DNA of 64,000 nt from Terebella lapidaria (lineage: Eukaryota > Annelida > Polychaeta > Terebellida > Terebellidae). The DNA lies in assembly GCA_949152475.1 (NCBI GenBank), contig OX424561.1:27398481-27462480 (forward strand). The letters run 5' to 3'. Of the stretch, positions 36,355-59,250 are shown one piece after another (positions within the stretch are counted from its first letter, which is position 1; every line of letters starts with the position of its first letter). The translations under genes were made by a program, and so were the position numbers. Below the pieces are notes generated by a model that was not told where the DNA came from, searched no databases, and saw nothing but the letters and a program-made list of their open reading frames with translations.

Positions 36355-36800
36355 ATATTGGAGGTATTTTTAGTTTCTTGGTTTTCGCTTTTTTTCAAAA
36401 TGGTGGCCGATTTTAGACGAAAAACGCCCACTTTTGGAGTTTGGCAGACAGTTTTTGAGATTTTCATTTCAAAAGATTCTCCTTTATATACCTCTGTGAT
36501 GTGTAAGTTTCGATGCCTTTGATTCGATGGTCTTCGTGTGGCGGCCATTTTGATTTTCCGGCGGGTGGGCGCAAAAAAGTGTTTTGTCCCAAGGCAATAT
36601 TCGTTTTGAGTCATTTCCAGCGAAGAAAAACAAATTCTTGGCCTTTGAAAATTTTTTGGACCTAAGTTCAAAAATTTCACCCAATTTTGTCTAAAATGCT
36701 GAAACACTTCAAGATAGAGCCATTTCGATTTTTCGATGGCTTTGCGGAATAAGTTAGTTGTCCCAAATAAAGTCACTATTCATTCTGATCCATTTCCAGC
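36355..36800 (+). repeat. Family B fragment
   Basis: It shows the forward interior of family B: GGAGGTATTTTTAGTTT, AAAATGGTGGCCGATTTT, GTGTGGCGGCCATTTTGA, and CACTTCAAGATAGAGCC. The terminal hairpin and the distal end are absent. Confidence 0.6.
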
Positions 36801-36859
36801 CGGAAAAAAAATTCTTTTTTTTTAAACAAAATTTGCAGGAAAGATCAAAACGGCCACTT

Positions 36860-38090
36860 TTTGTTATCATTATAGTACACACGTATAGTGATATTTTAAT
36901 AACACATCGGAAATTGAACACTTTCAGAACGTATCGCCTGTAATCATAATGACCAGCGAACGTGCCAATATCCCGAGCATACGTATGGAATATACTCTAT
37001 TTTCCGTTCATGCAATCTGGTATGCATTGACTTGTCTTGAAATCCGCATTCAGTGTATATTGTACCGAACTATACCACTAAGCCCCTGTTTCTGTCATTG
37101 TCGGGTGATATATAAGGGTTAATTAATCTGGGGGATACTCAGCGCAAGTTAGATCAACGTTTTCATGATATTCTCAGCAAAACGTGGGACGTTTATCTGA
37201 ATTTATATAAACAACGATATTTATATTAACACTGGACGATTATAATAATATGTGGACAAAATAGCAACTATATATATTGTGTCACATACCTCAAGGTCGA
37301 ATACAACATATGCAACTTGATAAGTCGAAAATAATTGGAACAGCGTGGGTAAATATTATAGGGTCAGACTACCACAAGGCCAAACTGAATCGTGGCTTCG
37401 GAGTTCGCAGTTTTAGTTATCCTAGCATACAGAACTAGTCACACAAATTATATGCGTCACGCCCCGAATAAAATAAACCATACATAATCATGTGTCATAT
37501 TTTACAGTCCAAACATGCAGACAACATTCATATATAATTCCCCATGTATAATTCGTGAAATGGGTCTCATATGGAGAGCAAACTTGGGCTGGGGCCCTGT
37601 GGAACGAAGGAATGCTATACACAATATCAAACACTAAAATATTATAGGTGAATAGAGATTTATAGTATCATTCTTAACTGCTCATCTAATTTGAATCGCG
37701 CAGTTAAGTTTTTCCTTGTTCACTGAACATGCGGCAATCGTTACAAAATAAATATAAATAAGATGGTGCCCCGCAAGTAAGATGGTGTCCTTTTTTAATG
37801 TTTTCCAATACAGAGAACCGGAACCCAGCACAATTAGGCTAGAGAGAAAGTCCTCGGATGTCAAAGTCAAAGCTACAAGCACATGATTTCTGGCACCCAT
37901 CTAGAATTGTGTCATTTAACAATTATCTCACATCAACATTTCTGCATTCTGCAGTTCGACATTGGCAGGTTGAGAACGATAGCGACCCTTTTTTAGTTAC
38001 ATTAACATTCACAGATAATGTTCATGCACTAAATTTCACTGCATGAATTCTATGGGTCAGTGATATAACTTGCATTATACACTATGTTCG
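36860..38090. other. Intergenic stretch upstream of the LDLa cluster
   Basis: No gene was recognised. It may contain the promoter and 5' UTR exon of the first, decayed LDLa paralogue, but I could not place them. Confidence 0.35.
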
Positions 38091-38102
38091 TTCGTTTTGC
38101 AG

Positions 38103-38984
38103 ATGGTGGCAGCTAATTTTGCACAGTTGGCCTCATTATGTGTGACTCTAGTTGTTGTGGCGAGAACGACCTCATAACTCACTATTACTCATCCGTGTGA
38201 ACAAAGTTCTATTCATTATGTATATTAAATTTTATGAATTTTTCTAGGTCCCAGCGCGTACCCAATACATTAATTACTGTCATTGTAAAAAAATGGCATG
38301 ATGTCATAATAATTGCTTTGAAGTAATTAAATATTCTTGTCCTCTTCAGGTTGTGTGTGCACATAAATGCAAGCAAAACAAATTGGAAAATCTGAAGCTA
38401 TTACGAGTTCTGAAGCTATTACGAGTTGTGTTTGACGGGTGCCCCGAGTGGCGTTACACGTACAACGACGGTGAATGTGTCCCGTTAGACTACATCTGTG
38501 ACGGGGACAATGATTGTGGAGACGCAAGCGATGAGGAGGAAGGCCCGGATACACCAAGTCAGTGTTGGACATATGCACGGATGAATACTGGTTTATTTTT
38601 TTTTTAAAAATTATAAATTTGTTGGCGGATTCACCTATTTCATATGTAGGCTGTGAGGCGGGAGAGTTCCAATGTCCTAGCGGAGGGCCTTTCTATGAAT
38701 TTTTTATGAAAATTGGAGATGTGACGAACGAAATGACTGCGGAGATTACAGTGATGAAGAGGATTATCCTGGACAAGGTATAGTCTACAAATGTATACTC
38801 ATGGCAATACAACATGATAAGCATTGATGGTATTGATGGAAGGTGACTTTTTTAATTCCAGATGATTGCAGGCCTGCGTACTGTGAGTGCCCGGATGAAA
38901 GGTGTCTCCCAACCTTATTCAAGTGTGACGGCGGTGTAGTGGACTGCTCAGATCACAGCGATGAAGAGGACTGTCCTGTTCATG
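38103..38984 (+). pseudogene. Decayed LDLa-repeat secreted protein gene (first paralogue)
   Basis: A signal-peptide-like exon starts at the ATG of 38103 directly after a CAG acceptor (MVAANFAQLASLCVTLVVVA), as in the two better-preserved paralogues downstream, but a clear GT donor is lost. LDLa-like segments follow. About 38437-38570 keeps [13 protein letters not shown] but lacks the second and sixth cysteines and a normal donor. About 38650-38779 begins GCEAGEFQC and continues [16 protein letters not shown] only in another frame, so it holds a frameshift, and it has Tyr for the last Cys. 38862-38984 is an intact phase 1-1 LDLa exon (CDGGVVDCSDHSDEEDC) with good splice sites. No lysine-rich last exon was found before the repeats that start at 39225. 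The copy is probably non-functional. Confidence 0.65.
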
Positions 38985-39224
38985 GTGCGCAGACTAGCAT
39001 ATCAATTCATGCATGTAATGTGAAGTTAACATTTTTCAAGCGCTCTGCAAAAACTCATACATAATAGCTGCTGTCAATACTCGTATATAATTTCCTTTTC
39101 TCCGAAAAGTATGTCCAAATCAATATATTGATATATCATCAAATATGATAAGCCTAATTTGTGGATGATGATGCTTCATATTCACATATACTGAAACGGG
39201 TGTAGTGAATATGGTTAGATTTAG

Positions 39225-40250
39225 GTTACCGTAGCTTTGGTCCGATAACCTATTGCCTTGGTGCTGCGTCCGTCGTCGTCGTCGTCGTCCGCCCACATTT
39301 TCATCTTCAAAGTTTACAATCGAATCTCTCTGACATTTTGCACAAAAATGCCTAAAAATATTTTGAGATAGAGGTATTTTTTAGTTTTTTGAATTTAAAA
39401 ATTTTTTTTGAATGGCGGCCATTTTTGACGAAAAACAGCTAATTTTGGACTTCGACGGTCGTTTTCTCAAAATCTGTTCTGTAACTTTTTGATTTGCATT
39501 TCTTATTGATGCACAACACTCCTCACATATAACCCTGTGACATGTATAAGTTTCGTTGCCCTTCAATTGCTCGAAGTGGGCCATTTTGGGCGCAAACATG
39601 TTCCAAATAGGACTTTCCCATGTTAAATTCTCCTATGCTTTTTAATGGGGCACATTTGTCCAAATATCTCACTTAATATTGAGATTAGAGATCAGGAATC
39701 AATTATGGACATACAGGAAATGATATATGCTGAATACTCTCGTGACCTTGAATTCCACCTTTGTCCTCATTTTCAAAGTCACAGGACAAAATGGCTAATA
39801 CCTCGCTTATTATCAAGTTTACAGCTTAGGAATCAATTGTGAACATATAGGAAACGATATATTCAGAATATTGTCGTGACCTTGAATATGACCTATGACC
39901 TCATTTTCGAAGTAAAAGAACAAAATGGCTAACATCTGGCTCATTATCGACTTTACAGCTTAGGAATGAATTGCGAACATAGAGTAAATGATATATGCTG
40001 AATATTCTAATGAGCTTGAACTTGACCTTTGACCTCATGTTCAAGGTCAGATCATTAATGGGCTAATATCTCACTTATTATCGACTTTACAGCTTAGGAA
40101 TCAATCGTGGACATACTGGAAATGATATATGCTGAATATTTTCGTGAAGTTGAATTGACCAATGACCTTATTTTCAAGGTCACGGGACAAAAGGCTAATA
40201 TCTAAAATATATATTGTCCGGTAACCTTTCTTAGATCTTGGGCTAAATTT
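39225..40250 (+). repeat. Family A repeat copy, partly inside a tandem duplication
   Basis: It runs from AGGTTACCGTAGC and GGTCCGATAACC through a (GTC)n tract, the T-rich part and five units to GTCCGGTAACC and TTGGGCTAAAT. A perfect DR1 lies at 40023-40035. A second copy of everything from 39343 onward occurs 2,391 bases later, with DR1 at 42414-42426. A conserved minus-strand open frame lies at 39381-39599. Confidence 0.75.
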
Positions 40251-43200
40251 CCTACTACATTTTGGATATTAGATAGGTTTCCGGAGCTTCATTACTGATA
40301 TAGATGGTTTTATCGGCTTTTTGAACCCCTTCAATGCGGGGCTCAGTGAAATCGTCTGTGCGGAGGAAAATTAGCAAAATATGAAATATTCTCATATATT
40401 TCGAATATTTAAACAAAGAATTGGAATATTATTGTAAGAATTATATTAATTTGATACTAAACTTTATTCTCATTCATACAGCTGTAACGCCTATAAAAAT
40501 TGTTTGCTACGTAGCAGGTTACCATGGCAACGATCACATTTTAACAAAACAAAACATGCTTTTCACACGGCACAAAATTATTCCCATCAAACACAAACTT
40601 ATGTCTCTATTTCCATTGACCTGTTCAGATATATAATGTAAGAGCTAACTAAAATAGTTCACGATTGCTGAGCAACATGTTGCAATCATAACTGTCGAAA
40701 TGTACAGCATACAGATATTGTAAATCACATCTATAAATATCGTGTGTGCATACAAAAAAAATCGCATGTAGACAAAGTACATGACGGTTTTCAAATTCTT
40801 CTGCGGAAATTAATCTAATAGGGTACATATAAGTTTGAGATGACTGGCCAAATAGTGCTCACGGCGTTATCTTAGAGTGCCCATTCATGCTCGCCAAACT
40901 TCTGTAAAATATCATAACGATCCTGAAACTCCACACTAACTTACAAGCTTCAGAATAGTAGGAATGGAAAGTGTTAAGAATATGTAAGGAAATGTTTTGC
41001 TGGTTTTTTTTTTTTTATTTATGAATTAAATTAATATCTCGCCTATTATTCCCCAGTGCTCGAGTCTTTACTCCAGGTTTTTCACTCCAGTTTTTTTTAT
41101 GCGCATATGCCTATATCCTACTCCAAGTGCGATTCTAATATGATATTTGCGACCCCCTCTGTACCACACAAACATCCCTGACATCAGACATCGGACATTG
41201 TGAACTACAGTTCACGGCATCGTGAACGGGCGAAGCGCAACGTATGTCCACCGTGGAATCACTCCCTGCCCGTCACTGCGGGAGACCTCGCGAAACGGAA
41301 CCAGCTGAAATTAGTGCGTTTTTAGTATATCCGGGCCCAGGGCCCGGACAATCACATATTGTTCAGAGCCCGTGCCCTTCTCGGGCTATACGCAGTTCAA
41401 CGAAGGGGTTAATTGGCTGCCGTCGAAAATGTTAAAATCATGCTATAATCGCAACTCCTATTGCATGCAGAGTTATGATTTTAGTGTGTATTCTATGGAC
41501 ATGTCTATTCATGATTTTGTTTTCACAAACAGGTGAGGGACTCTGTAAAAATAAATGCATTCACACCTCAGTGTAACTGCATTCTTCAAGGTGGGATGTC
41601 AAACCATCCGGATCGGGAATTTGCATACTTGTCTGATTGCCTGCATTGTGAGCATTTGGGGGCTAATGCAATTCGATAGCATTATTCCTGTTTTCCTGCA
41701 TGGTGTGTTTAACGGTAAAAGACGGCAAGTCGGCAAAAATGCCTAAAAATATTTTGAGATAGAGGTATTTTTTAGTTTTTTGAATTTAAAAATTTTTTTT
41801 GAATGGCGGCCATTTTTGACGAAAAACAGCTAATTTTGGACTTCGACGGTCGTTTTCTCAAAATCTGTTCTGTAACTTTTTGATTTGCATTTCTTATTGA
41901 TGCACAACACTCCTCACATATAACCCTGTGACATGTATAAGTTTCGTTGCCCTTCAATTGCTCGAAGTGGGCCATTTTGGGCGCAAACATGTTCCAAATA
42001 GGACTTTCCCATGTTAAATTCTCCTATGCTTTTTAATGGGGCACATTTGTCCAAATATCTCACTTAATATTGAGATTAGAGATTAGGAATCAATTATGGA
42101 CATACAGGAAATGATATATGCTGAATACTCTCGTGACCTTGAATTCCACCTTTGTCCTCATTTTCAAAGTCACAGGACAAAATGGCTAATACCTCGCTTA
42201 TTATCAAGTTTACAGCTTAGGAATCAATTGTGAACATATAGGAAACGATATATTCAGAATATTGTCGTGACCTTGAATATGACCTATGACCTCATTTTCG
42301 AAGTAAAAGAACAAAATGGCTAACATCTGGCTCATTATCGACTTTACAGCTTAGGAATGAATTGCGAACATAGAGTAAATGATATATGCTGAATATTCTA
42401 ATGAGCTTGAACTTGACCTTTGACCTCATGTTCAAGGTCAGATCATTAATGGGCTAATATCTCACTTATTATCGACTTTACAGCTTAGGAATCAATCGTG
42501 GACATACTGGAAATGATATATGCTGAATATTTTCGTGAAGTTGAATTGACCAATGACCTTATTTTCAAGGTCACGGGACAAAAGGCTAATATCTAAAATA
42601 TATATTGTCCGGTAACCTTTCTTAGATCTTGGGCTAAATTTCCTACTACATTTTGGATATTAGATAGGTTTCCGGAGCTTCATTACTGATATAGATGGTT
42701 TTATCGGCTTTTTGAACCCCTTCAATGCGGGGCTCAGTGAAATCGTCTGTGCGGAGGAAAATTAGCAAAATATGAAATATTCTCATATATTTCGAATATT
42801 TAAACAAAGAATTGGAATATTATTGTAAGAATTATATTAATTTGATACTAAACTTTATTCTCATTCATACAGCTGTAACGCCTATAAAAATTGTTTGCTA
42901 CGTAGCAGGTTACCATGGCAACGATCACATTTTAACAAAACAAAACATGCTTTTCACACGGCACAAAATTATTCCCATCAAACACAAACTTATGTCTCTA
43001 TTTCCATTGACCTGTTCAGATATATAATGTAAGAGCTAACTAAAATAGTTCACGATTGCTGAGCAACATGTTGCAATCATAACTGTCGAAATGTACAGCA
43101 TACAGATATTGTAAATCACATCTATAAATATCGTGTGTGCATACAAAAAAAATCGCATGTAGACAAAGTACATGACGGTTTTCAAATTCTTCTGCGGAAA

Positions 43201-44124
43201 TTAATCTAATAGGGTACATATAAGTTTGAGATGACTGGCCAAATAGTGCTCACGGCGTTATCTTAGAGTGCCCATTCATGCTCGCCAAACTTCTGTAAAA
43301 TATCATAACGATCCTGAAACTCCACACTAACTTACAAGCTTCAGAATAGTAGGAATGGAAAGTGTTAAGAATATGTAAGGAAATGTTTTGCTGGTTTTTT
43401 TTTTTTTATTTATGAATTAAATTAATATCTCGCCTATTATTCCCCAGTGCTCGAGTCTTTACTCCAGGTTTTTCACTCCAGTTTTTTTTATGCGCATATG
43501 CCTATATCCTACTCCAAGTGCGATTCTAATATGATATTTGCGACCCCCTCTGTACCACACAAACATCCCTGACATCAGACATCGGACATTGTGAACTACA
43601 GTTCACGGCATCGTGAACGGGCGAAGCGCAACGTATGTCCACCGTGGAATCACTCCCTGCCCGTCACTGCGGGAGACCTCGCGAAACGGAACCAGCTGAA
43701 ATTAGTGCGTTTTTAGTATATCCGGGCCCAGGGCCCGGACAATCACATATTGTTCAGAGCCCGTGCCCTTCTCGGGCTATACGCAGTTCAACGAAGGGGT
43801 TAATTGGCTGCCGTCGAAAATGTTAAAATCATGCTATAATCGCAACTCCTATTGCATGCAGAGTTATGATTTTAGTGTGTATTCTATGGACATGTCTATT
43901 CATGATTTTGTTTTCACAAACAGGTGAGGGACTCTGTAAAAATAAATGCATTCACACCTCAGTGTAACTGCATTCTTCAAGGTGGGATGTCAAACCATCC
44001 GGATCGGGAATTTGCATACTTGTCTGATTGCCTGCATTGTGAGCATTTGGGGGCTAATGCAATTCGATAGCATTATTCCTGTTTTCCTGCATGGTGTGTT
44101 TAACGGTAAAAGACGGCAAGTCGG
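39343..44124. repeat. Tandem duplication, two units of 2,391 bp, nearly identical
   Basis: Unit 1 is 39343-41733 and unit 2 is 41734-44124. Every landmark I checked is offset by exactly 2,391, so there are no net indels. The only difference noticed is C at 39693 versus T at 42084. The left break lies in the family A repeat; the junction shares CAAAAATGCC. The unit holds most of the family A copy and about 1.4 kb of sequence with no recognised gene, including an X-box-like GTTACCATGGCAAC at 40518-40531 and 42909-42922. It may be a very recent duplication, a copy-number polymorphism or an assembly artefact. Confidence 0.9.
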
Positions 44125-44280
44125 TTATAAAATAACACAAAGATCAATTTTGATCGCATTATCTCAAACATTGACGGAAGCATTGCGGGGGAAAAACACA
44201 CCGTTCACTACAGTGGCTAATAAGTGACATTGTAAAATAGAGTTAGTAATACTGACTGATACCTATACCTGACTGATGTT

Positions 44281-44625
44281 AATTCCGCGTAAATAATGTT
44301 ATTTACGCGTAAATAATGTTATTTACGCATGATTAAAGTTATTTACGCGTGAGTAACGTTTTTTAAAAAAATGTGTGTGTATGTTATTTACGCATAAATA
44401 ATGTTATTTTCGTGTAAATAAACGTTTTTCCCGCGTAAACAAAGTTTTAATTCGCGGAAATAACATTATTTATTACTGCCGTGTGTGATATACTAACCAA
44501 ATACAGCCTGCACGTGCATTTATCTTTCCTTTGGTCGATGGGGTCAAATAACGTTTTTTCCGCATAAATATCGTTATTTCCGCGTAAATAACGTTATTCT
44601 GGCGGAAATAACGTTATTTCTTCAC
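44281..44625. repeat. Short palindromic tandem repeats
   Basis: Units around CGTAAATAACGTTATTTACG, with variants, are repeated in two blocks (about 44281-44478 and 44547-44622). Each unit is self-complementary, so the region can fold into many small hairpins or cruciforms. Confidence 0.75.
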
Positions 44626-44639
44626 AAATTATGTAACTT

Positions 44640-45145
44640 ATGAACAAGTCGAGATTACTCCCAATGATAAATAAGGTTTTTTTTTCGCAGTGCTACTTAT
44701 CAGCGACTGTAGTTCACAGAATGCAGACGATGACTCAAATACGTGACATTGCAACTGAGACAAAGGGTTTATCTTATCAAATGATCAACATTCGTAAATC
44801 AGCAAAACCCCAGCTCATGAAAGTGTCGGACTAAAATAGCGGACAGGGATAGGCATCCATTACAATTTTTGTAGCAATCTTCACATTATCACACGATTTT
44901 AGGTATGGAATCGCAATCTGTCGATGTTGAGAGGGATGGTCTAGAAACTAATCGTGTCTTGATCAAAATGTCACAGTCATTTGAGTTGATTATTCAAATA
45001 GACGAAACAATATAACTACACTATTAACTGAGATAATGACACCCTAACTTGAGATTTTTTTCTGCTCTGTAAATGTCATGGAGGCATTTATGTACTATTT
45101 TTCCATAGCGGTAAAAATTATAAATGCTTTGACAGTGTACTAAAC
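44640..45145. other. Intergenic stretch before the second LDLa gene
   Basis: No gene was recognised; it is the presumed promoter-proximal region of the gene starting at 45325. Confidence 0.35.
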
Positions 45146-45150
45146 AAGTG

Positions 45151-45158
45151 TATATATA
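45151..45158 (+). promoter_or_regulatory. Candidate TATA box of the second LDLa gene
   Basis: TATATATA lies 167 bases before the ATG-bearing exon, in a position comparable to the TATAAA of the third paralogue. A 5' UTR intron probably separates it from the ATG, because the ATG directly follows an acceptor. Confidence 0.4.
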
Positions 45159-45324
45159 GCCATATTCTAACCCTCATACATCATTCACACACAGACACAA
45201 GGTGACGTAGCTTCCCAAGGTTCAAAATCAACAGGATTATACTCTAACGTTACTCGCGTACGTTTGATTAAACGGTAATAACAAATTCACATATTCAGTT
45301 TGTTATGATTTTTTGATGATGCAG

Positions 45325-48300
45325 ATGGCGTTCACGCGAATTCTGGCGTCCGTCGCTGGCTGCTTGATGGTCGGAACCACTTTGGTGAGTACCCATCAAA
45401 ACATTTGAATGTGTATTCCGTCTGGACGTTATTTTCCTTCATCATAATGAGTCTAGATGTAATATCCTGAAGTCCAAATATATAGCTCAGAGGGTTACAT
45501 TGTCATGCATGTATACATGTATATTCTACCTCATGATCTCGCCGTCAGGTGTCGGCCAAATTTGCACATCGTCGGGATTACAGGAAGTACTGATATTACG
45601 AAACCCCCTTGATCACATAGCACGAACTGATAGCTACTAATGTGTTAATGCTTTAACCTGAGCTTTTAACATGATTTTATTTATTTATTCATTTATATCA
45701 CATTGTACACACATCTAAAAGTATAGTAACAGAAAGAGTAAACCATTAGTCATGTAGCACACAGCCCTAGGAGGCTCACACTGTCTCCAGCCTCGTGTGA
45801 CGGCTTCTCCTGTGACAACGGGGCCTGCATTATCGGATCCTGGCGGTGTGACGGGGATGACGACTGTGGGGATGGGAGTGATGAGGTTGACTGCCCAATC
45901 ATTCCTGGACAAGGCATGGACTGATGCGAATATTCATTGCTCTAAAGCTGTATTAATTGAAAATTATTCATTTCAATTATTCGAAATATGAGTATGCTGC
46001 GATATGTTGAGTTTGTTTTACCAAAAAATGAAACACTTATCCTGTAATAAGCTGTTAGTTACGTTATGATATTTATTGGTAATTAGATGCTATAGCACGG
46101 AGAAACGATCGTCATGAGAAATAATCACGAATAGTTACACCAATCGCATAATTCGCCAAAACGTCATGATGATATGCCAGCTTGCTAACTCATTCACTGC
46201 GTTCTGAACCCGTGCAACGAATGCATTCAAACTGATAAATTATTGGTGTAGGGAGCTGTTCTACCGGGAGATTTCAGTGTGACAATGGGAACTGCGTTCG
46301 GTTTACTTGGAGATGTGATGGCGATAACGACTGTGGCGATGGGAGTGACGAATTGTGTGGTAAAAAAACACGATATAATATTATTTGTACCTTATGACAA
46401 CTACTTCAGATGTATATCAACTGAAATTGACAATAATAAACCAAGCATGTGGAAGAGAATACCGAAACTTATATTACCTATGTATATATGCATATGACAT
46501 TAATTATAACATTGTGTAACATGAATATGTTCAATTCACGTGCATCCAAAAGTTACCCTGAACACAGGGTATAACCTAACACCAAACGGACCAATCTGAT
46601 TTCCGAAGGCATCTGGCTCTGCTGTGTTGAGCGCATATTGACAGTAAAATCATCCTAACTGTTGTCACATATTATGAAATATACCTATGAATTATATTGC
46701 CTATTGTTAACAACACAGTGTGCCCGGCTGACCGGTGGCAATGTGGCAACTACAACTGCATCAACGAGAACTACAAGTGTGACGGGGATAACGACTGTGG
46801 AGACTACAGTGACGAGGAGGACTGCCCTGTACTGTCAGGACAAGGTATGCCATTCACCAAGCCTCATGCTAGCCTGATATACTACTACAAGCAATAGAAT
46901 GAAGTAATGTATATATATACTGTGACATCGTATCGATGGTTGATATTTTGATAAAACATCTGTAAAACTCTTATGTTAAATTATCCAGTGCCTTTGTAAA
47001 TATTTGTGGCGTGAACACCTGAAAGTACAACATAGTGAGCAAATATGGATGTGTTTTCGGCTTCATGTTCATAGCGATCATGTCCACGAATAGACCAGGC
47101 AGCGCATTTCTTGTAAAAATGCAATGTACATATTTTCAGAAAAAAAAAATGCAAATCCAATTCAGTGATTCCCTCCTAAACAATACGCGTCTTTTTCTGG
47201 TTTTAATGGCAACAAGCTTTAAAAATTGAAGCCGATTGAGGGGCACGTTTACACAAATGTATGAACACGTTCCAAGCTAACAACGTTTTTTTGTGAATTC
47301 TCTGTTCGAGATGTTGACCCAAAATGTCAAAACAAATTCAAGAATTTGTCGTGCACTTAGTTCAATCCAGTGACAGTTCGAGCCTTGGAACGTTAGACAC
47401 ACTGATGAACGTGGAAGCGTCGATTGGCTAGCTGTAAAACCTCCATGCTGTCTCAATTCCATATGGATAATATTGTTATGTTTCCCTTGGCCGTTGTTTC
47501 CACATTATGCTAGATCTAACACACGTCTCAAACTTGACATATACGAACACAAGCATTCAGTGTTAGACGACAGTTGTCACAACGGCATCTTGTGTTACAG
47601 GAAGTTGCCGATATTTACACTGGGAGTGTGGCAACGGGAACTGTGTCCGTGCTGCGTACAGATGTGATGGAGACAACGACTGTGGAGATGGAAGTGACGA
47701 AATATGCGGTAAATGATGATGAGATATCCCCAACATCTTAATATTCCATACGCCTACTTAATATTATACGGTGATGTCCCACTAACAGGCCGGTATAGTC
47801 ATGAAATCTCGTTGGCTTTTAGACTGTCCAGCTGGAGAGTTCGCATGTTCCAATGCTGACTGTATCCCCGGGAACTGGCAGTGCGATGGTGATAATGACT
47901 GCGGAGATAGAAGTGATGAAGAAGGATGCCCTGTACAAGGTTATCTAATATTCTACTATATCTACTGATGCACAAAACTGTTCATATATGTATCAATTTC
48001 TTATGTAAGACTTTTTGTTATATGGTTATCAATTTCTTATGTAATACTTTGTGTTCTATTGTTGGATGCAAGAATACCATATATAACTAACTTGCTATTT
48101 TCAACGCTTGTCATTGTGGATTATCTTGAATTTATGGTGTGATTTGATTATAGTAGAAGAAAATCGTAGTCCACCGTTCTCTTTTTTGTCTTTTTGAAAG
48201 ACAAAAAGACAAAATTGAAAGAATACTACAAACATAGTTAAAAACCAGTATTTATCTTGTTCCAAACAATTTACTGTGAAATGCTTCTCAATCATGACAG

Positions 48301-48374
48301 ACAAACGTCACAATTACAAGCGTAACATGAAGGACAAGAAGGTCAAGAAGGAACTGAAGAAGAGACGCCACTAA
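45325..48374 (+). CDS. Secreted protein with five LDLa modules and a lysine-rich tail (second paralogue)
   Basis: Exons: 45325-45384, an uncertain short exon at about 45549-45570, 45791-45913, 46252-46359, 46719-46844, 47601-47708, 47823-47939 and 48301-48374. The product is about 245 residues. Exon 1 is a signal peptide ([20 protein letters not shown]). Each LDLa exon is phase 1-1 with six cysteines and the calcium-cage motif [13 protein letters not shown] ([13 protein letters not shown] in the first). Modules alternate between a longer type ending in PGQ/SGQ and a shorter type ending in E-hydrophobic-C. The last exon encodes [17 protein letters not shown], strongly basic. LDLa modules bind Ca2+ and basic ligands outside the cell. 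There is no transmembrane span. Oddities: the 45791-45913 exon is followed by GC rather than GT, and the second exon has only a weak GT donor. The overall gene is still open and probably functional. Confidence 0.75.
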
Positions 48375-48465
48375 ATGTGCGAGGCGACGGTTGATTTCTC
48401 CCAAACTTCAACAGCACACCGAATCACGCTCAAGGAACTGGACCGCGCCTTTGTACTTTGTACAT

Positions 48466-48471
48466 AATAAA
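48466..48471 (+). terminator. Poly(A) signal of the second LDLa gene
   Basis: AATAAA lies 92 bases after the stop codon, a normal distance for a short 3' UTR. Confidence 0.65.
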
Positions 48472-48479
48472 TCTGTTAG

Positions 48480-50190
48480 TTAGTGCATTTAAATGGCTGA
48501 GTGTTTTTTTTATGCGTATGACCCTACCCAGGACATCGAGTGTGCCAATTTATCATGGGGAGTCAGTGTGACACAAAGTCATCTCTATTTGCGTGGACCA
48601 AGATCACAGCCGAAAGGATAGAATGGGATATAATTTATTCGAACTTTAGCACATACGACTCTCATTACCATGCAATATATATTATACACAGCAAGTGATT
48701 GTTATAACGAAGCGGGAAGAGGGTGCGCACAGGATTTATTGCAGGGGGGTTGGGGTAGGAGGGGGGCGAGCTCAAACATCCTATTCCACGGCATTTTGTT
48801 CATTGTCGGATAATTTGTGAATTTCCGATGACTTACGCGAAAATTTAGGGAATCATTATGGAGGGGGATACCCCATTGTACAAGCCACTGATTGAACGTT
48901 TCACGGCAATCGTCATCAATACAACCACCAAAACCCCTTCATAACCTCAACAGAACAGTCAAGATAATGTTTCACAAGTTTTTCATTGACACAAAAGCTG
49001 TCATAAAATTATAATTTTATCAGAACTTATAGATTTTTGTGATCCGGTGCTTCAATTGGTGCAAGAATGTCATAGGCGATATATTATTATTAGATATATT
49101 GTATTATTAGATGAGTTGATCTGTGAATCGCTCTCGTTATACAGCGAATAGCAGAAAAAGTCACGCGGGTGACCGTCACGCGGGTGGCCGTCAGGACAGC
49201 AGGATATACACGTTCCGCTATATTATTATGAAATTAGTTTTCGCTTGAAAAAAATATGAATCCATATCAAAGACAAGCCATAAAATATGACAAAATTTAA
49301 TTACCGACACTATATTACCAATTTTGATATTCACTAGATGAAATTACTGTGCGAAAGTTTACAATACCGATTGTTTTCTATTTGAATGTCAAAATTCATA
49401 AAAGCGCATGTAAACTCATAACGTATTTGAAATCACCATTTATTGGATAAAGCAAATACACATATGCTGTTTTTTACACGATCCAAATATATTCATTCAT
49501 CTTTGGGCATTGTGTCAAATTTGTGTTATTTTATTACTGAATAATTCGAATCTCATTTATCTATTATAATCAGTATTCATGGCGTCACAGGTAGATATCA
49601 GTTTTGATTAGGTGCTATAAAAGCTTATTTTGGCACTTACATGTATGTGCATTTTATTGCAAGTTGATTTGTTGTTAGATTTGACAATATATAAAATATC
49701 ATAGTTATAAAAATACAATGACTATCTCCACTTGTACACTCCCTCATCCTGAGCTAGAACCTCTAAATATTCTGTTCACCATACAACATTTTCACATACC
49801 CTGGTCATGTTAATTCACAAACGCATAGATAATAAATTAAATCATGATATAGCGTTCTACACACACAGAGCATGTTGCTCACAATACGACTTTTGTGACC
49901 TGGGCAATCCGGCGGCTGGAAAAAAATACCCATTATGGAGGATGATATTATAACCAGTTGATATATGTGCAAATACATGCATGGCCACACTGTCTAGACA
50001 CAAAACATGCGGATACACGTGCACGAGTTTTGTAAACAAATAAATTTGTCAATTTACAAATTTGGATCATATAGTAGCATGTCCGGTTTAAATAGTAACA
50101 TGCTTCGATTGAGGGATCGTCCTTACATCCGTGTGAACCTTGAAAAACACCAATTAAGTGGAGATTTGTGTACGTGACTCCCTCAGTGTA
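48480..50190. other. Intergenic stretch between the second and third LDLa genes
   Basis: No gene was recognised. A small tandem repeat CACGCGGGTGACCGT occurs twice near 49153-49185. Confidence 0.4.
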
Positions 50191-50197
50191 TCAAGGG

Positions 50198-50203
50198 TAT
50201 AAA
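50198..50203 (+). promoter_or_regulatory. TATA box of the third LDLa gene
   Basis: TATAAA is followed by a stretch that ends at a strong donor (AAAAAG before GTAAGTG, 50313). The next acceptor abuts the ATG at 50409. This gives a short 5' UTR exon starting about 50230, an intron of 96 bases, then the coding start. Confidence 0.55.
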
Positions 50204-50408
50204 GTCACCGTAGTGAGATGCAAAGCGACGGACACACGGATTTGACCCATACCTTGGTGCTTCTTAACATTTAGCAGTAAAACTGTTCCCAGTTTTAGGC
50301 AGTCACGAAAAAGGTAAGTGATCACTCTTTTTATCAATCCACACACATAACTAATTTTTGTAGTTTGAATTATATTGGCGTTGTCAATATTATTACTTTA
50401 TGAAACAG

Positions 50409-53400
50409 ATGGGACCAGCGAAATCCTTGGTGCTCATCTCCGTTTGTTTGATGGTCACAGTGAGTTTTGTTGACATTTCACATTAAAAGTATTTCAATTT
50501 AGATCAATTTGAAGGTATTGATTTCGAATTCACTAAAATTTTGGGGCTACAGTTGTGGGCTACATGTCCAATTTCCTTCAACTGTAATTGTACGACAGCA
50601 GTTCGCTTGGTGTCAATCTAAATTTAGGACTATGTAACCAAGATGTTCGTATTTAATTTCAACAACAAAACGAACATGCTATTCTCCACAATAGTTTTGA
50701 TTAATGGAGATGCATTACTTTCTCTTTAGACTGTATTATAACGTATTTATTTCAATACCTTTATTTCCTGCTATACAGACATCAGCCAAAACTGTGGAAA
50801 ACCGCCAAGCCAGTACAGGTATGTGAATGTGCATTATATATACTCGCCGATATCTAATATGCCAATGTTTTTTTAGTTTCTTTTATTTTTTATATATATA
50901 TATTTTAATTCAATTAGGTAGTTATCGCTAATGGACTCTGTCTAGAATTGTAATCGTGATATTTTTCTCAAATTATTCTGTATATGAGTTAGCTACCAAA
51001 TTCAGTTAGCTAGATTATGACACCTAGCAGGAAAAACTGTTTACTAAATATGTTTGTATTCCTAAGGTTGCCCGCGTGGACGATGGCAATGTGATAATGG
51101 GCGCTGCATCAACGAGAACTACAAGTGTGACGGGGATAACGACTGTGGAGATCTGAGCGATGAGCGGGGATGTCCCACAGCTCCTGGACAAGGTATTTTC
51201 CTCAGCGTGTACTGTTGTTATTCCATTTCAACTTGTGTTTGTCGAAATTGGTAGTACTGTAAAAGTACTAATTTTCGCGCGGTACTTATTTCGCGTATTT
51301 CGCGGTAAGGGTAGATCCGCGAAATTAAATACCTCGCTTTTTTTTTGAGGTTTGTGGCCGTCCATAGCACAATACGCTGTTGCTAATCATAACGCGCAGA
51401 ATTACGTTAGTTACAGTGCCCAGATACCGGTCGCTAGCGTCTGCATGGCACGTGCTTGAACTTGGTACTGAAGACATCTGCACCAAGTTCAAGCTTCTGC
51501 AGACTAAGCATGACTTGTTTGACGTTTGTGTTTAAAATTTCAAATAAAATCTGATTTGATTTCCTGTGACTTTCCATTTCTCACACCAATTGCATTGATA
51601 TACTGTGATGTCCATCAACTGCAAATTCTTTATGCGATTACTGGCAATCACTGAACCGCGAAATTAAATCCCCGCGAAATTGCCTGGGGGTAAAATCCGC
51701 GAAATTTAATACCTGCGAAAAAAAGTGTTTTTACAGTATGTATCGACATGGCGTTAGGTGATGCAAAAACTGGCCTGCCGTAGCCTGATAGTCTGAGCTC
51801 GGACCTTCCAGTCTAATTTTTCAGTATAGGAATGAAAAGTTTAAATTACCAAAAAAATAACACCTCAACCGTCAAAAGGTGGAAACAAAAAGAAGTGAAA
51901 TGTGATATGACATACTTGGCCCTATCTGGAAAAAAAAAACATTGGCAAGCCAGTATTACTGGCACTTTATTGTAGTCCAGATCAAAGTACCCAAAATGGT
52001 GTTCTGAAATCCACTATTATCCCGGTTATATCGGTATTAGTCGCTACCGCAGGAGAAATTTGCACATTAATATTATGTTTCGAGCCACCGCGTGGCTTGC
52101 GTGGAGTATGGTGGCTGCCACACACGCTGGTAGAAACAAAAACAAGTCCTCTCTGAATATTGAGCTACACCTTTTTCACAGAGCCTTATTACATTCAAAT
52201 CATCTGAAGCAGCAAATTAACCATGCACGGTACATCTGAGGCACAATGTGTGTTTTTTTAATGAATTTACATGGTAACGTATATGCCTGTGATTGCATTT
52301 TACTACGGAAGCCCATAAGTGACATGCGCGGAAAATGAATTGGTGGGCTTTTTTTTGTAAAAAAAACCACTATCCCGTCCACACGTGCAAAGTTCAAGGC
52401 TACTACATTCACACACAGCAATTACCGCTTTAATGTTTGCATGGTAGCTTCTAGTTTCCTTAAATACTTCCTGGTATGCTTCCACGTGTTTAGAGGACAC
52501 CAACAGTTGTTTTTCTATGCATGTCATATATGGACTAGCGTATGTTCCCACAAGAGGCGCAAATATCACTAATTATATTAACTTTTGGGCTTCATTTCTA
52601 CAGGGAACTGCCCTGCCACTCGCTGGCAGTGCGCAAACGGCAGGTGCATCTACGCCAGGTGGGTGTGTGACGGCGACAACGACTGCGGAGATTCCAGTGA
52701 CGAGATCTGCGGTAAAATGGAAGTTCCAAATTGATAACATACTGTTCTATCTATGTATCTGAGGACTGTAAATAAAAAAAATCCAGTTGTAGTGACGTAG
52801 CATAATTATGACTATCATTATAACAAGTTACTGTATTATGCACTCATATACTTTTTCGTTATTTTTTTTTCTCCATATATTCTGATTGGATGTTCAAATT
52901 GACCGGCTCCTAAACCATTATTTAATAGATTGTAGGCCAGGACAATGGAAGTGTGACAACAATCGATGCATCAACGAGAACTACAAGTGTGACGGAGATA
53001 ACGATTGTGGAGATCTGAGCGACGAGCGGGGATGTCCCACAGCTCCTGGACAAGGTTGGTTTCCATAAATTTAACGCTCGCCCCTTAGCTTTAATCATTA
53101 TAGCTTCAGCTAATACCCCTTACATAGTCGACCTTGGGTGATAATATGAAAGTTTGGTCATATACCACTGGTCATATATCTAATGGTTAGCTATGATGGA
53201 CCAAATCAAGATTCCACTGGTCATCTGTAGAAATATGCAAATTTATGTGAGCGCACGTGATCATTTTTGATGGTAATCCAACTTTTCAATAAGGTAGAAT
53301 GTATGTAGGCAATCTTGCTCCCGTAGATTAGCTTGTTTGCTTACCTGTCCCACTGAAATGAAATTATCTGGAATGTGTATTCGCAGGAAACTGCCCTGCC

Positions 53401-56012
53401 AGACGCTGGGAGTGCGACAACGGAAACTGTGTCCGTGCTGCCTACAAATGTGATGGAGACAACGACTGCGGAGATGGAAGTGACGAGGAGGGATGTGGTA
53501 TGTTTCTAATCTACATTATCAATATTACATGATGACCAATCCATTCATGAACACTCAGCTAGAACATGATAATTAGAATCACATATGAAAATAATTACTT
53601 TTCTGAGATTGTCCAGTTACTAGAGGTTTGTGAATCAAATTAAATCTCGGACAGGAATAGGGATCTTCACACACGGAATACTCACTCTCTCCGTAGCACC
53701 GAAATTCAAAGAATTATGGGTTTAAAAAATTATTCGATTCGCATGACACTAGACATTTAGATTGTGTTACAGACATGATTGCTTGTAATGCCATTATGAC
53801 TTTTGAGTGGGTAATCCAGATGAAATTAAAGTGGAATAATCGGTTTCTGAAATTCGTTATCAATCAATTGGCTAGCATATATCAGATGATATAGCACCAT
53901 TACAACCCCCAAAATACGTCCGCATGATCTTGCAGTGGAGTTTGAACATACCGAAAAAAACACACGATGTGAAGGAATTGTTTACATCTGTGGCAACATA
54001 AACAAAGACATGAATTTTACTATATTGTCGTTATTTACAACACAATTCCGTCACTGTTATGTACCATACATATACGAGTCACAAGCCATAGGGCTGTACA
54101 CTTCTCTATATGTTTAGCTATTTTTGTTAATTTGGCATCACTGCATGGGAACCGTTTCGCGAGAAACCATTTCTAAAATCCGAATTTCAGTGTCAACTTT
54201 AGACGAATTCCTGTGCGCATTGGAACTTTCGCACTGTATACCTGCTCTTATGACAGCTATTGATCACTTTCAAGTGGAAAACCAAATACCGATTATTTCA
54301 CTTTGAATAACGAATTTCAATATGATTGATACATAATTTTAGGTGCTGGACGTGAATTTTGCGAATTTGCATGTAATATAATATATTAAGCATATATTGC
54401 AATTTAACGGCTGTACTCATTCGTAGCAACCAGATAGGCTTATGTAATCTTTGTACAGTTCAAAAATGTATCTATCCCTGTAGAATGTCCGAATGGGCAA
54501 TGGCAGTGTGACAACAATCGTTGCATCAACGAGAACTACAAGTGTGACGGAGATAATGACTGTGGAGACAGAAGTGATGAAAGAGGCTGTCCCACAGCCG
54601 CTGGACAAGGTATTGCATCATCCGGATTTACCACTGGCTTACATTGCAAAATTTATACATGTAGTGATTCAGATAATAAATTTGAGCATGTATCAGAGTA
54701 AAAAAGATACCAGATACATGTTCAAGCATACACCGTCAGGTGTTTTTCAGACTTATTATTTTGCCTAGTTTGATCACTTCTCACACAATTGCAGGAAACT
54801 GTCCAGCCAGACGCTGGCAGTGTGCCAACGGCCGATGTATTCGATTCTCCTACAGATGTGATGGAGATAACGATTGTGGAGATGGAAGTGACGAGATATG
54901 TGGTGAGATATTAATTTCAGACCATCGCATCCAACATATTCGCATGGGATTTGAAGCTAAATACTATTCTCTATCTTTTGCACAGATAATAAGTAACAGA
55001 GTCAATAATTCGTATCGTTGTTGATTTGGAGATACGTTTGGATGTCATGTTATATATTCCTTCTATTGAAAAGAATGTGATGAAGATGAGTGGCAATGTG
55101 TCAATGGTCGCTGCATCACCGGAAGGTACAGATGTGATGGAGACAATGACTGTGGAGATCACAGTGATGAAGTGGGATGTCCAGTTGGTCCAGGGCAAGG
55201 TGGGTGTCAACACGTCTGATAACTGGCAAATTGCCACAAATTGATAAGCTGACTAATGAAGTAGCAGTGTGATAAGAAAATGTAACTGTTCCCAAATTCA
55301 ACCCATACGGATAAAACATATGTCATGATCGAGTTTGAGTATAGGTAATACTGAGAATAAGCAATAAAATGAGGATGAAGATAGGCAAAAGTAAACAGAG
55401 TTTTACACACACCACCGTCCAAATTACATTACAAACCATACAAGCACTATATCGTGTTGCTTTGTGTTTAATAACTCGATTACAAAAATCAGTGCCACTA
55501 TTCTCTTTTGTAGGAGACTGCCCCAGTATGCACTGGGAGTGTGCTAACGGCAACTGTATCCGAGCGGCCTGGAGATGTGACGGAGACAACGATTGTGGAG
55601 ATGGAAGTGATGAGAATTGTCCGGGAAGAGGTGTGTTAAACCAAAAAAGCCATGCTATCAAATAAATACAAGTATGATGGATAGATTGTATGCATGGTAC
55701 GCTCAACTCTAGTACATCGTCGTGCCAGTGTTGAAAGTACCTCCGTGTTTGATAGCATAACATGTCTTGTCTATATAAATGTGTAATTGCTCAATATGAT
55801 AGAGTATATTGATCGCAATATAAAAAAAAAAAAAAAAAAACAAAAAACTAAAACAATGAGTGAATAGTAATAATATTTGTTATCAATGAATAAGAAATGA
55901 CCATGTTGTATGCCTCTCTACCCATTATGTATAACACTTTCTGATATTTTTGTTCATAGAAAAGAAGCAACTGAAAGAAAAGGAGGGCAAGAAGAAAATG
56001 ATCAAGATATAA
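50409..56012 (+). CDS. Secreted protein with eight LDLa modules and a lysine-rich tail (third paralogue)
   Basis: Eleven coding exons with GT-AG sites: 50409-50459, 50779-50818, 51067-51192, 52604-52711, 52929-53054, 53387-53497, 54484-54609, 54795-54902, 55074-55199, 55514-55630 and 55960-56012. They total 1,092 bases and give 363 residues. Exon 1 is a signal peptide ([17 protein letters not shown]) and exon 2 a short linker. Exons 3-10 are one LDLa each, phase 1-1, six cysteines. All carry [13 protein letters not shown] preceded by an aromatic residue and one more residue (YKC, WVC, YRC, WRC), the pattern known to hold calcium and clamp ligand lysines. They alternate long (126 bases, ending PGQ or AGQ) and short (108-117 bases). 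The last exon encodes [16 protein letters not shown]. No membrane anchor, EGF or propeller domain occurs, so this is not an LDL receptor. The role is unknown; extracellular scavenging or recognition is inferred. Confidence 0.85.
51255..51738. mobile_element. MITE in intron 3 of the third LDLa gene
   Basis: The left end TACTGTAAAAGTACTAATTT, then a CGCG-rich part, is inverted at the right end (TTTTTACAGTA at about 51728-51738). Subterminal motifs (TTTCGCGG and CCGCGAAAT) occur repeatedly inside both halves in opposite orientation. There is no coding sequence; the element is about 484 bp. Confidence 0.7.
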
Positions 56013-56137: not shown

Positions 56138-56143
56138 AATAAA
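56138..56143 (+). terminator. Poly(A) signal of the third LDLa gene
   Basis: AATAAA lies 126 bases after the stop codon; no better signal occurs before it. Confidence 0.65.
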
Positions 56144-56353: not shown

Positions 56354-59250
56354 AAGTGTCACTATCACGAAGGTACTAATCACTAGTAGATATAGTATGT
56401 AGACTCATCCTGAGATAGTGTCACTCTCACGGAGGTACTACTCACTAGTAGATATAGTATGTAGACTCATCCTGAGATAGTGTCACTCTCACGGAGGTAC
56501 TACTCACTAGTAGATATAGTATGTAGAATAAGAGTAGAATATAATAAAATTTTATTCAACGTCGGATCAACAGAACATGATAAAACAATAGCCCAGGGAA
56601 TATTTACCGACAAAGATGATACAATATATGTACAATGATCCTAGTATCATACCATTAAAACATTGAATCCAGTAGAATATATTCCCACTTCTTCTGTAGA
56701 ATTTTGAAACTTTTATAATTCACTTCTCGCTTGATATTTTTCGGTAGTCCATTCCATAATTATGGTGGTTCCTTCATACCTTAGATTATGTTTACCATAT
56801 TTCACAGTGTTAAACTTCGGTGGCTGTAATCGCAAGAAGTCGTTTATGTCGTAACGTCCTGATTTCACCTCAAATGAGTTTTCTAAATACTGGGGAACAT
56901 TTGAAGACATGTTGCAATAAGCCTTAGCCTGTGTACATACAATGAAGGTTTACCACTTTTACTTCTCAGTTCTTCATATGGTGATTTGAAATCATTCATC
57001 ACATATCTCAGAGCACGTTCTTGTATTTTTTAATCTTTCTTGCATTAGCTATACTACACTAGTGCCATACCAGTGGACAGTAATTGAAATATGACAGTAT
57101 GAAGCTCTCTGGGAGTGTGAATTGTTCTTTCATTTCAAATGTATGAGCTAATCGAGCTATAGCATTTAGGTGACATCCTGCCTTTTTGCAATGATATTGA
57201 TATGTACATCAAAATCTAGCATGTGGTCAATATGAACCCCTAACAATTTGACATTTTTCTCAGGTTGTAGAGATATACCATTGACAGAGATTGGCTTTTC
57301 ACCTGTTTGCTTACCAAATACAATGTATTGAAACTTTGATGGATTTGCTTGCAATCCATTATTTTCAAACCATTCCATGATTACCTTTGCAGCATTTTCA
57401 GTATTGGACACAATATCAGCTACATTCTCCCTTGTACACACAAAGTATATTCATCAGCATAGATATATATATATATCACATACCTCCTGCATAGAGTACA
57501 TCAAGTCATTGCGAAGCACATTGTAAACAAATGGTCCAATTTTAGATCCTTGTGCTGTTCCTTTCTTCACATTCATCCAATCACCTTTTATACTATGCAT
57601 TTTCACTCTTTACTGTCTATCTTTGAAATAATTAGCAATCATCTTACATGCACCTTCATCAAATCCATAAGCATGCATTTTAGCAACAAGGAGGCCATGT
57701 GAGATACAATCAAATGCTTTAGATAGGTCAGTGAGGAGAGCTGCACAATGTTGGTGTGTATCAAGGGCTTGCTTACATTTATACATCATATTCAACAGTA
57801 CACTCTCACAGCTATATCCTTTCCTGAAGCCAGACAGATTGGGTGAAAACACTGATTCAAAGTAAGATGTCATTTGTTCCAGCAGAACACCTTTAAATAT
57901 TTTGGTAAAACAAGGCAAAACACTCACAGGTCTATAGTTTTCCTTATGCAGTCTATTATTCTTTTTTTTATACTGGTGTAACCTCAGTAAGCTTCAATTC
58001 TGTTGGAAACATAAATGTACTTATTGCCTTATTGATAACATGTTGTAAGGGCTGAGCTAGGTGCTGGGCCCCTATTCTTAGAAGCTTAGGCTGGGTATTA
58101 TCATGACCAGTTGATTTTTTAATATTCACATCTCAAAGCTTTTAAAATACATTTTCTTGAGTCACCTGTTTGAAACAAAATACATTTTGAGCAGACATTG
58201 ACTTGATACATTTGACAGCTGGATTTTCTTGATGCTTATTCACAATTTCATTGATATTTTCATGTGGAATGTCATCTGGGTACCCAATGTTATTTGCAAC
58301 ATTTACATAGTACTCATTCAATACATTACACACCTCCAGGCGATTGTTTGTGATACAGTTGTCTTCCATAAGTGTTATAACATCATTTGATTTTTTGTTA
58401 TTATGTGATATCAAGGGTTTGACATGTTTCCAAAACTCCTTACTATCCTTTACAATAGAACATTTATTTTGTAAATATGTTTTAACACTTTTTCCCGAAT
58501 CTTCACTTCCAGATCCCTATACTTTCTATATTGTTCCCAATTCTTGTTTTGTATTTATGATATCTACGCTTCATGTTGCGTACATTTATAGTTTTTCTTA
58601 GTTCAGCATTCATATATGGGACTTGATTATGCCTGATCACTTTGGTTTTCATTGGAGCATGCTCATCAATAATGTTCTGAAAGAGATTTTGACAGAACCA
58701 GTATGAATTATTTACATCATCAAATATATCAGAGACATGAAGACTCATGCTGAGGTAGTGTCACTATCACGGAGGTACTACTCCCTAGTAGATATAGTAT
58801 GTAGACCCATGCTGAGGTAGTGTCACTCTCACAGAGGTACTACTCACGAGTAGATATAGTATGTAGACCCATGCTGAGGTAGTGTCACTCTCACAGAGGT
58901 ACTACTCACGAGTAGATATAGTATGTAGACCCATGCTGAGGTAGTGTCACTCTCACAGAGGTACTACTCACTAGTAGATATAGTATGTGGACCCATGCTG
59001 AGGTAGTGTCACTCTCACGGAGGTACTACTCACTAGTAGATATAGTATGTAGACCCATGCTGAGGTAGTGTCACTATCACGGAGGTACTACTCACTAGTA
59101 GATATATTATGTAGACCCATGCTGAGGTAGTGTCACTATCACGGAGGTACTATTCACTAGTAGATATATTATGTAGACCCATGCTGAGGTAGTGTCACTA
59201 TCACGGAGGTACTATTCACTAGTAGATATGGTATGTAGACCCATACTTTA
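56354..59250. repeat. 62-bp minisatellite, split in two
   Basis: The unit contains GTAGTGTCACTCTCACGG and ACTAGTAGATATAGTATGTA. About three units lie at 56354-56527 and eight, spaced exactly 62 bases, from 58739 to about 59250. Both blocks have the same orientation and the unit phase continues across the intervening LINE fragment. Neighbouring units differ by only one or two bases, so the array is young or homogenised. Confidence 0.9.
56528..58738 (-). mobile_element. 5'-truncated, broken LINE (Rex1/CR1-like)
   Basis: Read on the minus strand, a linker segment (58748-58503: DEHAPMKTKVIR, NQVPYMNAELRK) leads to the reverse transcriptase: SVLPCFTKIFKGVLLEQ and LTDLSKAFDCISHGLL (about 57927-57610), then GTAQGSKIGPF, ADEYTLCV in the position of the F/YADD motif, and KNVKLLGVHIDHMLDFDVHI (57441-57166). 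The endonuclease is missing. The frames are interrupted several times by stops and shifts, and the catalytic second Asp appears changed to Glu. The 3' end is at the left, next to an AATAAAATTTTATT stretch. It is inactive and older than the LINE at 26 kb. Confidence 0.75.

What the first reader, a model, noticed from the sequence alone, without database searches (positions are those of the whole stretch)
38103..56012. Tandem family of small secreted LDLa-only proteins with a lysine-rich tail
Seen directly: three neighbouring same-strand genes. The two better-preserved ones share one architecture of TATA box, ATG immediately after an acceptor, signal peptide, phase 1-1 LDLa exons and a strongly basic last exon ([33 protein letters not shown]). 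There is no EGF, propeller, CUB or membrane anchor. LDLa-only secreted proteins with a polybasic end are not a family I can name. Copy number, module number (about 3, 5, 8) and decay of one copy suggest a fast-changing, lineage-specific, possibly immune or ligand-scavenging family. The function is inference.
Basis: partly seen in the sequence, partly recalled or inferred. Interest (0 to 1): 0.7.

Follow-up and report, generated by a model that had tools for sequence, protein, structure and literature searches.

The report
Worm LDLa-array proteins with basic tails
In what looks like an annelid worm genome, a cluster of genes appears to encode secreted proteins that are just a string of calcium-binding LDL-receptor modules ending in a lysine- and arginine-rich tail; the pattern recurs in related genes on the same chromosome and looks preserved by selection, but its function is still a guess.

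Summary
Gene C (50409-56012) splices to exactly 363 residues: signal-like exon, eight phase 1-1 LDLa exons, basic last exon, stop, AATAAA. Gene B (45325-48374) has five LDLa exons and a basic tail, but its second coding exon lacks the GT donor that its twin, on the other arm of an inverted duplication outside the window, keeps. Gene A (from 38103) is decayed, and its twin shares the decay. Extension: the same order (LDLa run, then a basic exon with stop) occurs in eight LDLa runs, in two clusters 3.3 Mb apart, with five tail types; 8 of 27 run-ending LDLa exons have such an exon within 400 nt (0.49 expected, post-hoc criteria), 0 of 131 others. LDLa modules are under purifying selection, and three related tails keep their basic residues except at one Q/K site. 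No LDLR-propeller match lies near (150 of 252 candidates scored). So these look like self-contained LDLa-only genes, not receptor fragments. Most modules of tailed genes keep the lysine-docking pocket. Best guess: the tail is a built-in ligand for these pockets, giving calcium-dependent self-association or autoinhibition. Untested.

The parts
38103..38974 (+). Gene A, decayed copy: signal-peptide-like exon starting at 38103, LDLa remnants at 38440-38538, 38708-38764 (frameshifted) and 38867-38974; no basic tail found within 400 nt
   Evidence: twin A' on the other arm (C7:27484657-27485535, minus) shares the lesions
45151..45156 (+). TATA motif of gene B (TATATA; another TATAAA at 45119)
45325..45384 (+). 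Gene B signal-peptide-like exon, ATG directly after AG
45549..45582 (+). Gene B second coding exon (extent taken from twin B'); GG where the twin has the GT donor
45791..47939 (+). Gene B five LDLa exons (45791-45913 with GC donor, 46252-46359, 46719-46844, 47601-47708, 47823-47939)
48301..48374 (+). Gene B last coding exon, basic tail [23 protein letters not shown] and stop; AATAAA at 48466
50198..50203 (+). TATA motif of gene C; same sequence in twin C'
50409..50818 (+). Gene C signal-peptide-like exon (50409-50459) and second coding exon (50779-50818)
51067..55630 (+). Gene C eight LDLa exons: 51067-51192, 52604-52711, 52929-53054, 53387-53497, 54484-54609, 54795-54902, 55074-55199, 55514-55630, all phase 1-1
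55960..56012 (+). Gene C last coding exon, basic tail (E)[16 protein letters not shown] and stop; AATAAA at 56138
36706..52443 (.). Arm of an inverted segmental duplication; the other arm is C7:27473346-27487139 outside the window, about 90-98% alike over most of its length (85% in the 173-bp end piece)

Best explanation
These are genes for small, probably secreted extracellular proteins made only of LDLa modules (3 to 8 in the modelled genes) followed by a last exon that encodes a basic tail. The genes expand as tandem and inverted copies on one chromosome of a probable annelid. Most likely mechanism: each LDLa module folds around one Ca2+ and offers the acidic-plus-aromatic pocket that, in LDLR-family receptors, docks a lysine of the ligand. 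The tail brings several lysines or arginines on a flexible end, so it acts as a tethered ligand that docks on modules of the same molecule (autoinhibition, a built-in RAP) or of neighbouring molecules (calcium- and salt-sensitive self-association in mucus, tube, cuticle or body fluid). Shown here by sequence: gene structure, recurrence of the tail, selection on modules and on one tail type, presence of the pocket residues. Inferred: splicing, secretion, calcium binding, docking and any tissue role.
For: Self-contained reading frames for C and C': signal-like exon, LDLa exons, basic exon, stop. Basic exon behind the last LDLa exon in 8 LDLa runs (B, B', C, C', P1-P4), 85-371 nt after it; AATAAA or ATTAAA within 500 nt in 6 of the 8, none found for B' and P3. 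Rate test: 8 of 27 run-ending exons against 0.49 expected, 0 of 131 others (post-hoc criteria, five tail types). Tails P1-P3: dN 0.05-0.06, dS 0.22-0.34; in the aligned codons K/R sites are the same in all three except one Q/K site of unknown direction. Pocket pattern [WYF]xCDxDxDC in distinct modules: B+B' 6 of 6, C 8 of 8, C' 2 of 3, P 19 of 22, against 19 of 73 from 11 loci on four other chromosomes and 3 of 33 in cluster U. The spacing fits the LRP1 pocket W994/D999/D1001 docked by RAP lysines in that paper's model (passages of PMC8239462); docking of two or more lysines into acidic pockets is given as the common mode (passage of PMC7609443). C's LDLa region has 34 K/R and 67 D/E; its tail 8 and 3.
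Against: No binding, expression or protein data. Many modules have tyrosine at the aromatic place (C: 6 Y, 2 W; P: 10 Y, 10 W, 2 not matched), whereas the RAP paper reports tryptophan and less often phenylalanine there. Array T keeps the pocket in 36 of 43 distinct modules, yet I found no basic tail after it, so pocket and tail do not always go together. Module copies share ancestry, so the pocket counts are not independent. B and B' tails differ by three residues, two of them K, and by an N/K change, so the exact number of lysines is not fixed. A tail rich in K with some E (gene C) may simply bind polyanions.
Confidence: 0.35

Rival explanations
1. The basic tail is an anchor: it holds the protein on polyanions (glycosaminoglycans, mucins, nucleic acid, bacterial surfaces) while the LDLa string captures other ligands, so the protein is a fixed scavenger or opsonin.
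For: Tails are hydrophilic and basic, with little shared sequence between the five tail types; this needs no specific docking.
Against: Does not by itself explain the high retention of the lysine-pocket residues, though LDLa binding of outside ligands would.
Confidence: 0.3
2. Structural extracellular-matrix or secretion protein: tail lysines are sites of covalent cross-linking (transglutaminase, lysyl oxidase or quinone), and the LDLa array is a calcium-dependent spacer.
For: TATA motifs upstream of B and C and multiple copies would fit gland products, weakly; limpet adhesive protein P-vulgata_3 carries five LDLa repeats (passages of PMC7333891).
Against: No expression data; no other repeat type in the product of gene C; the tails are only 15-46 residues.
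Confidence: 0.15
3. Immune or venom-type effector family under diversifying pressure.
For: Copy-number change, decay, changing tails. LDLa proteins occur in centipede and remipede venoms (passages of PMC5577568).
Against: LDLa modules compared show purifying, not diversifying, selection. The tails have little hydrophobicity for membrane attack. The passage says its authors knew LDLa proteins only from arthropod venoms.
Confidence: 0.12
4. Exons of a larger LDLR- or LRP-type receptor.
For: In solved structures the best matches are LRP2, LRP4, VLDLR and LDLR arrays.
Against: Complete short reading frames with a signal-like exon and stop for C and C' and a polyadenylation signal after C; none of the 93 listed propeller matches lies in C7:24.1-28.1 Mb (150 of 252 candidates were scored); no EGF-like pattern in 263,920 bases of the clusters, both strands (my own regular expression, not shown to find known EGF domains).
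Confidence: 0.05

Closest known systems
LDLR/LRP receptors, ligand-binding LDLa clusters (LDLR, VLDLR, LRP1, LRP2)
   Same: Strings of LDLa modules, Ca2+ cage, acidic-aromatic lysine pocket; phase 1-1 LDLa exons are also known from LDLR (recalled)
   Different: No propeller match or EGF-like pattern found nearby (with their limits) and no membrane anchor in the models of C and C'; a basic C-terminal exon instead
RAP (receptor-associated protein), the lysine-bearing chaperone of LDLR-family receptors
   Same: Works like it only in the proposed sense: lysines that dock on LDLa pockets
   Different: RAP is a separate protein; here the lysines would be part of the LDLa protein itself. Not a member
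Linker chains of annelid hexagonal-bilayer hemoglobin
   Same: Secreted annelid protein in which an LDLa module serves extracellular assembly (PMC6400237, passages)
   Different: The linkers carry an LDL-A-type cysteine-rich domain and belong to the globin complex; here 3-8 modules and a basic tail
LDLa proteins of arthropod venoms and the LDLa-bearing limpet adhesive protein P-vulgata_3
   Same: Secreted proteins with one to several LDLa modules
   Different: Remipede forms join LDLa to a serine protease, the limpet protein is SCO-spondin-like; the passages seen mention no basic tail

Membership tests
LDLa domain (PF00057) | Match above Pfam's gathering score, acidic Ca2+ cage | tested here: met
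   269.3 bits against a cut-off of 24.1, 8 stretches in gene C; Ca-cage pattern in 8 of 8 C and 6 of 6 B+B' distinct modules
LDLR/LRP receptor family | YWTD beta-propeller (PF00058) | tested here: not met
   93 genome matches listed, none in C7:24.1-28.1 Mb; the only ones on C7 are at 20.22 Mb (150 of 252 first-look candidates scored); none in gene C
LDLR/LRP receptor family | EGF-like domains beside the LDLa cluster | tested here: inconclusive
   0 hits of an unvalidated regular expression in 263,920 bases; the PF07645 genome search lists only 150 scored of 1545 candidates, none on C7
LDLR/LRP receptor family | Transmembrane segment and cytoplasmic tail | tested here: not met
   Spliced models of C and C' end in a hydrophilic basic exon and a stop; judged by eye, no transmembrane predictor at hand
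RAP (LRPAP1) | RAP domains and ER-retention signal | tested here: not met
   Pfam scan of gene C at E up to 1 gives LDLa and a weak DUF2850 only; tails end ..MIKI..KRRH..LGKH, not a KDEL/HNEL-type end (motif recalled)
Annelid hemoglobin linker | Linker-specific domain beside the LDLa module | tested here: inconclusive
   Pfam scan of gene C at E up to 1 shows no such domain, but the genome search with the linker model, whose accession I recalled, did not complete
Secreted (signal-peptide) proteins | Cleavable N-terminal signal | tested here: inconclusive
   Hydrophobic N-terminal exons after AG|ATG in A, B, C, their twins, and one each heading a P and a Q run; no signal-peptide predictor at hand

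The most novel reading that the evidence does not exclude
A hook-and-loop system. Short LDLa proteins carry their own lysine hooks, and the pockets of neighbours, including a giant LDLa array without a detected tail on the same chromosome (66 profile hits, 27.795-27.833 Mb), are the loops. Together they would build a calcium- and pH-reversible extracellular network, a use of the LDL-receptor pocket as a self-assembly joint rather than a receptor.
Probability: 0.12. Interest if true: 0.75.

Novelty: new variant of a known kind. Interest (0 to 1): 0.42.

Why it matters
LDLa modules are known mainly as ligand-binding parts of receptors. A secreted family that couples them to a selected basic tail gives a small, testable protein with pocket and possible ligand in one chain. 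It would show whether the LDL-receptor pocket has been turned into an assembly or self-regulation device. It also gives a case of tandem and inverted expansion with one intact, one damaged and one dead copy side by side.

Tried and rejected
Single-module AlphaFold2 job on window 52931-53053 without an alignment: mean pLDDT 57.2, uninformative, not used. Species name: searching papers for the assembly size gave 0 papers; only 'probable annelid' is claimed, from the mitochondrial gene order read off ORFs (that this order is the annelid pattern is recalled). ARAGORN found no tRNA in the mitochondrial contig, so tRNA order was not used. A module tree has only 32 columns and 5 starred of 66 inner branches; nothing rests on it. 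For it 103 modules were collected (cluster U, low-scoring and partial ones left out) and 80 kept, near-identical T units dropped. My donor-site scores rest on a poor matrix (a textbook donor scored -4.4) and are not used; the acceptor matrix (121 sites, picked by rule) served only as a filter. One search failed on a script error and was rerun. Tail criteria were set after seeing the tails; the 27 'run-ending' exons are those with more than 1500 nt to the next LDLa hit and so include some inside long introns; the background rate includes the positives; the 8 positives fall into 5 tail types, since B/B' and P1-P3 are copies. No basic tail passed the criteria in clusters T, Q, U or behind A and A'; a fourth serine/lysine tail lies behind a decaying Q gene. 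Full spliced models were made only for C and C'; P and Q genes are LDLa runs with flanking exons, and P3's last module looks damaged. The 73 control modules come from 11 loci that earlier searches had returned as best matches (C3, C12, C16, C17), and include a few partial strings. EGF_CA genome search is saturated. NCBIfam gave nothing. Paper searches for an LDLa family of this build listed no such family; 35 and 38 list only 12 of 515 and 12 of 126 papers. I saw passages of PMC7609443, PMC5577568, PMC7333891, PMC8239462, PMC7853314 and PMC6400237, the rest as search listings only.

Full report
What was checked. The window is C7:27398481-27462480 of a 761.6-Mb assembly. Its mitochondrial contig carries, all on one strand, nad4L-nad4-..-nad1-nad3-nad2-cox1-cox2-..-cox3-nad6-cob-atp6-nad5, read in code 5 (genes named by eye), which I recognise (recalled) as the annelid order. 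The organism is therefore probably an annelid; no name is claimed.

The three genes. Pfam finds eight LDLa stretches and nothing else above its cut-off. Gene B has a signal-like exon, five LDLa exons and a basic last exon. Against its twin, its second coding exon has lost the GT donor, and its first LDLa exon has a GC donor in both twins, so B as it stands in the window may be compromised. Gene A has lost cysteines and a reading frame, and its signal exon runs into GCGAGA where B and C read GTGAGT. Its twin shares these features, so A was probably already decaying when the segment was copied.

An inverted duplication. Window 36706-52443 is repeated in inverted order at C7:27473346-27487139, mostly about 90-98% alike. 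This gives twins A', B', C' and a direct test of constraint. Between B and B', the LDLa exons differ at 7 of 580 bases, and the rest of the aligned stretch outside the listed exons at 71 of 2530 (the short second coding exon is counted in the rest); over 167 LDLa codons dN is 0.0024 and dS 0.070. The first LDLa module of C and C' has five substitutions, none changing an amino acid. The 20-codon signal exon is looser (dN 0.097, dS 0.065). C' is a complete 166-residue reading frame with three LDLa modules and the tail RRRMSRKRTLDLGKH.

The family is larger. In the genome, all listed matches to the 363-residue protein with at least 70% identity lie on C7 (154 matches, list truncated), in clusters at 24.14-24.17, 24.30-24.33, 27.44-27.49 and 27.80-27.83 Mb; more distant ones are at 27.86 and 28.01-28.06 Mb. 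Cluster P (24.14-24.17 Mb, minus strand) contains four more basic last exons: three of the type KRSGMSKKSLKSTKTKKSLKSEKTKRSMKSDKKQHK and one KRSLRNFKKMHREKRH. A genome search with the first finds it at four places, all on C7; the fourth lies behind a decaying LDLa gene of cluster Q. Signal-like exons MAFRSCAVLALALLV and MAFRSCAVLALAMLM stand upstream of a P and a Q run and resemble B's MAFTRILAS...

Is the tail real? With criteria set after I had seen the tails (net charge at least 5, at least 0.3 per residue, a scored acceptor), 24 candidates occur in 527,840 strand-bases. Eight of 27 run-ending LDLa exons have one within 400 nt, where 0.49 would be expected; none of the 131 others do. The eight fall into five tail types. 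Selection gives a second line: between P1, P2 and P3 the tails have dN 0.048-0.063 and dS 0.22-0.34, and in the aligned codons the K and R sites agree in all three except one Q/K site whose direction is unknown. B and B' tails differ by three residues in frame (two of them K) and an N/K change, and stay strongly basic: 13 K/R of 23 and 12 of 20. So the basic character is kept while sequence and length drift.

What it is not. None of the 93 listed propeller matches of the genome lies near (150 of 252 candidates scored), no EGF-like pattern was found in the clusters (pattern not validated on known EGF domains), and the models of C and C' end in a stop after the tail. In solved structures the closest sequences are LRP2, LRP4, VLDLR and LDLR arrays, as one would expect of any LDLa string.

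How it may work. LDLR-family modules bind ligands by docking lysines into a pocket of Ca2+-cage acids and an aromatic residue; two or more lysines are used (passages of PMC7609443, and PMC8239462). The residues named there for LRP1 (W994, D999, D1001) have the spacing of the pattern [WYF]xCDxDxDC. That pattern is in 6 of 6 distinct B+B' modules, 8 of 8 of C, 2 of 3 of C', 19 of 22 of P, 9 of 12 of Q and 36 of 43 of T, but in 1 of 4 of the decayed A+A', 3 of 33 of cluster U and 19 of 73 modules from 11 loci on four other chromosomes. These modules are related by descent, so the counts are not independent, and many carry tyrosine where the paper stresses tryptophan. Still, a chain holding both pockets and a selected lysine-rich end suggests that the end is a ligand in cis or in trans. 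I give this about one in three. Anchoring on polyanions is nearly as likely.

Against my reading: array T keeps the pocket without a tail that I could find; no expression or binding data exist; the tail of gene C also holds three acidic residues. If T and the tailed genes are made together, T could be the multivalent partner, which is my boldest reading (0.12).

Verdict. By sequence, a self-contained family of LDLa-only genes with a basic last exon, sound in the window for gene C and repeated outside it; a new variant of a known kind. Lineage-specificity is untested.

Noticed in passing
C7:27795640-27833316 (L025-L029): A giant array of LDLa exons (66 profile hits, many in near-identical units spaced about 310 bp) on one strand; no basic tail found at its end and no convincing signal exon.
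   Followed up: partly
window 39343-41733 and 41734-44124: A 2391-bp stretch is duplicated in tandem with a single mismatch; both copies align to one stretch of the other arm of the inverted duplication, so the tandem copy is probably recent.
   Followed up: yes
C7:28011952-28063546 (L037-L040): A further LDLa subfamily with very similar modules on opposite strands (28.012 and 28.062 Mb), apparently another inverted duplication; the lysine pocket pattern is mostly absent there (3 of 33).
   Followed up: partly
C16:8356779-8360459 and C3:27081968-27085165: LDLa arrays in single long open frames (1250 and 1154 residues), unlike the one-module-per-exon genes here.
   Followed up: no
C417:44633-46450: A second COX1-like sequence in two pieces on another contig with in-frame TGA; could be a nuclear copy or another organism's mitochondrion.
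   Followed up: no
window 57610-57993 and 35581-36075: Reverse-transcriptase-like reading frames (judged by eye), retroelement remnants beside the LDLa genes.
   Followed up: no
window 44270-44630: A stretch with repeated GCGTAAATAACGTTATT-like units between genes A and B (seen).
   Followed up: no
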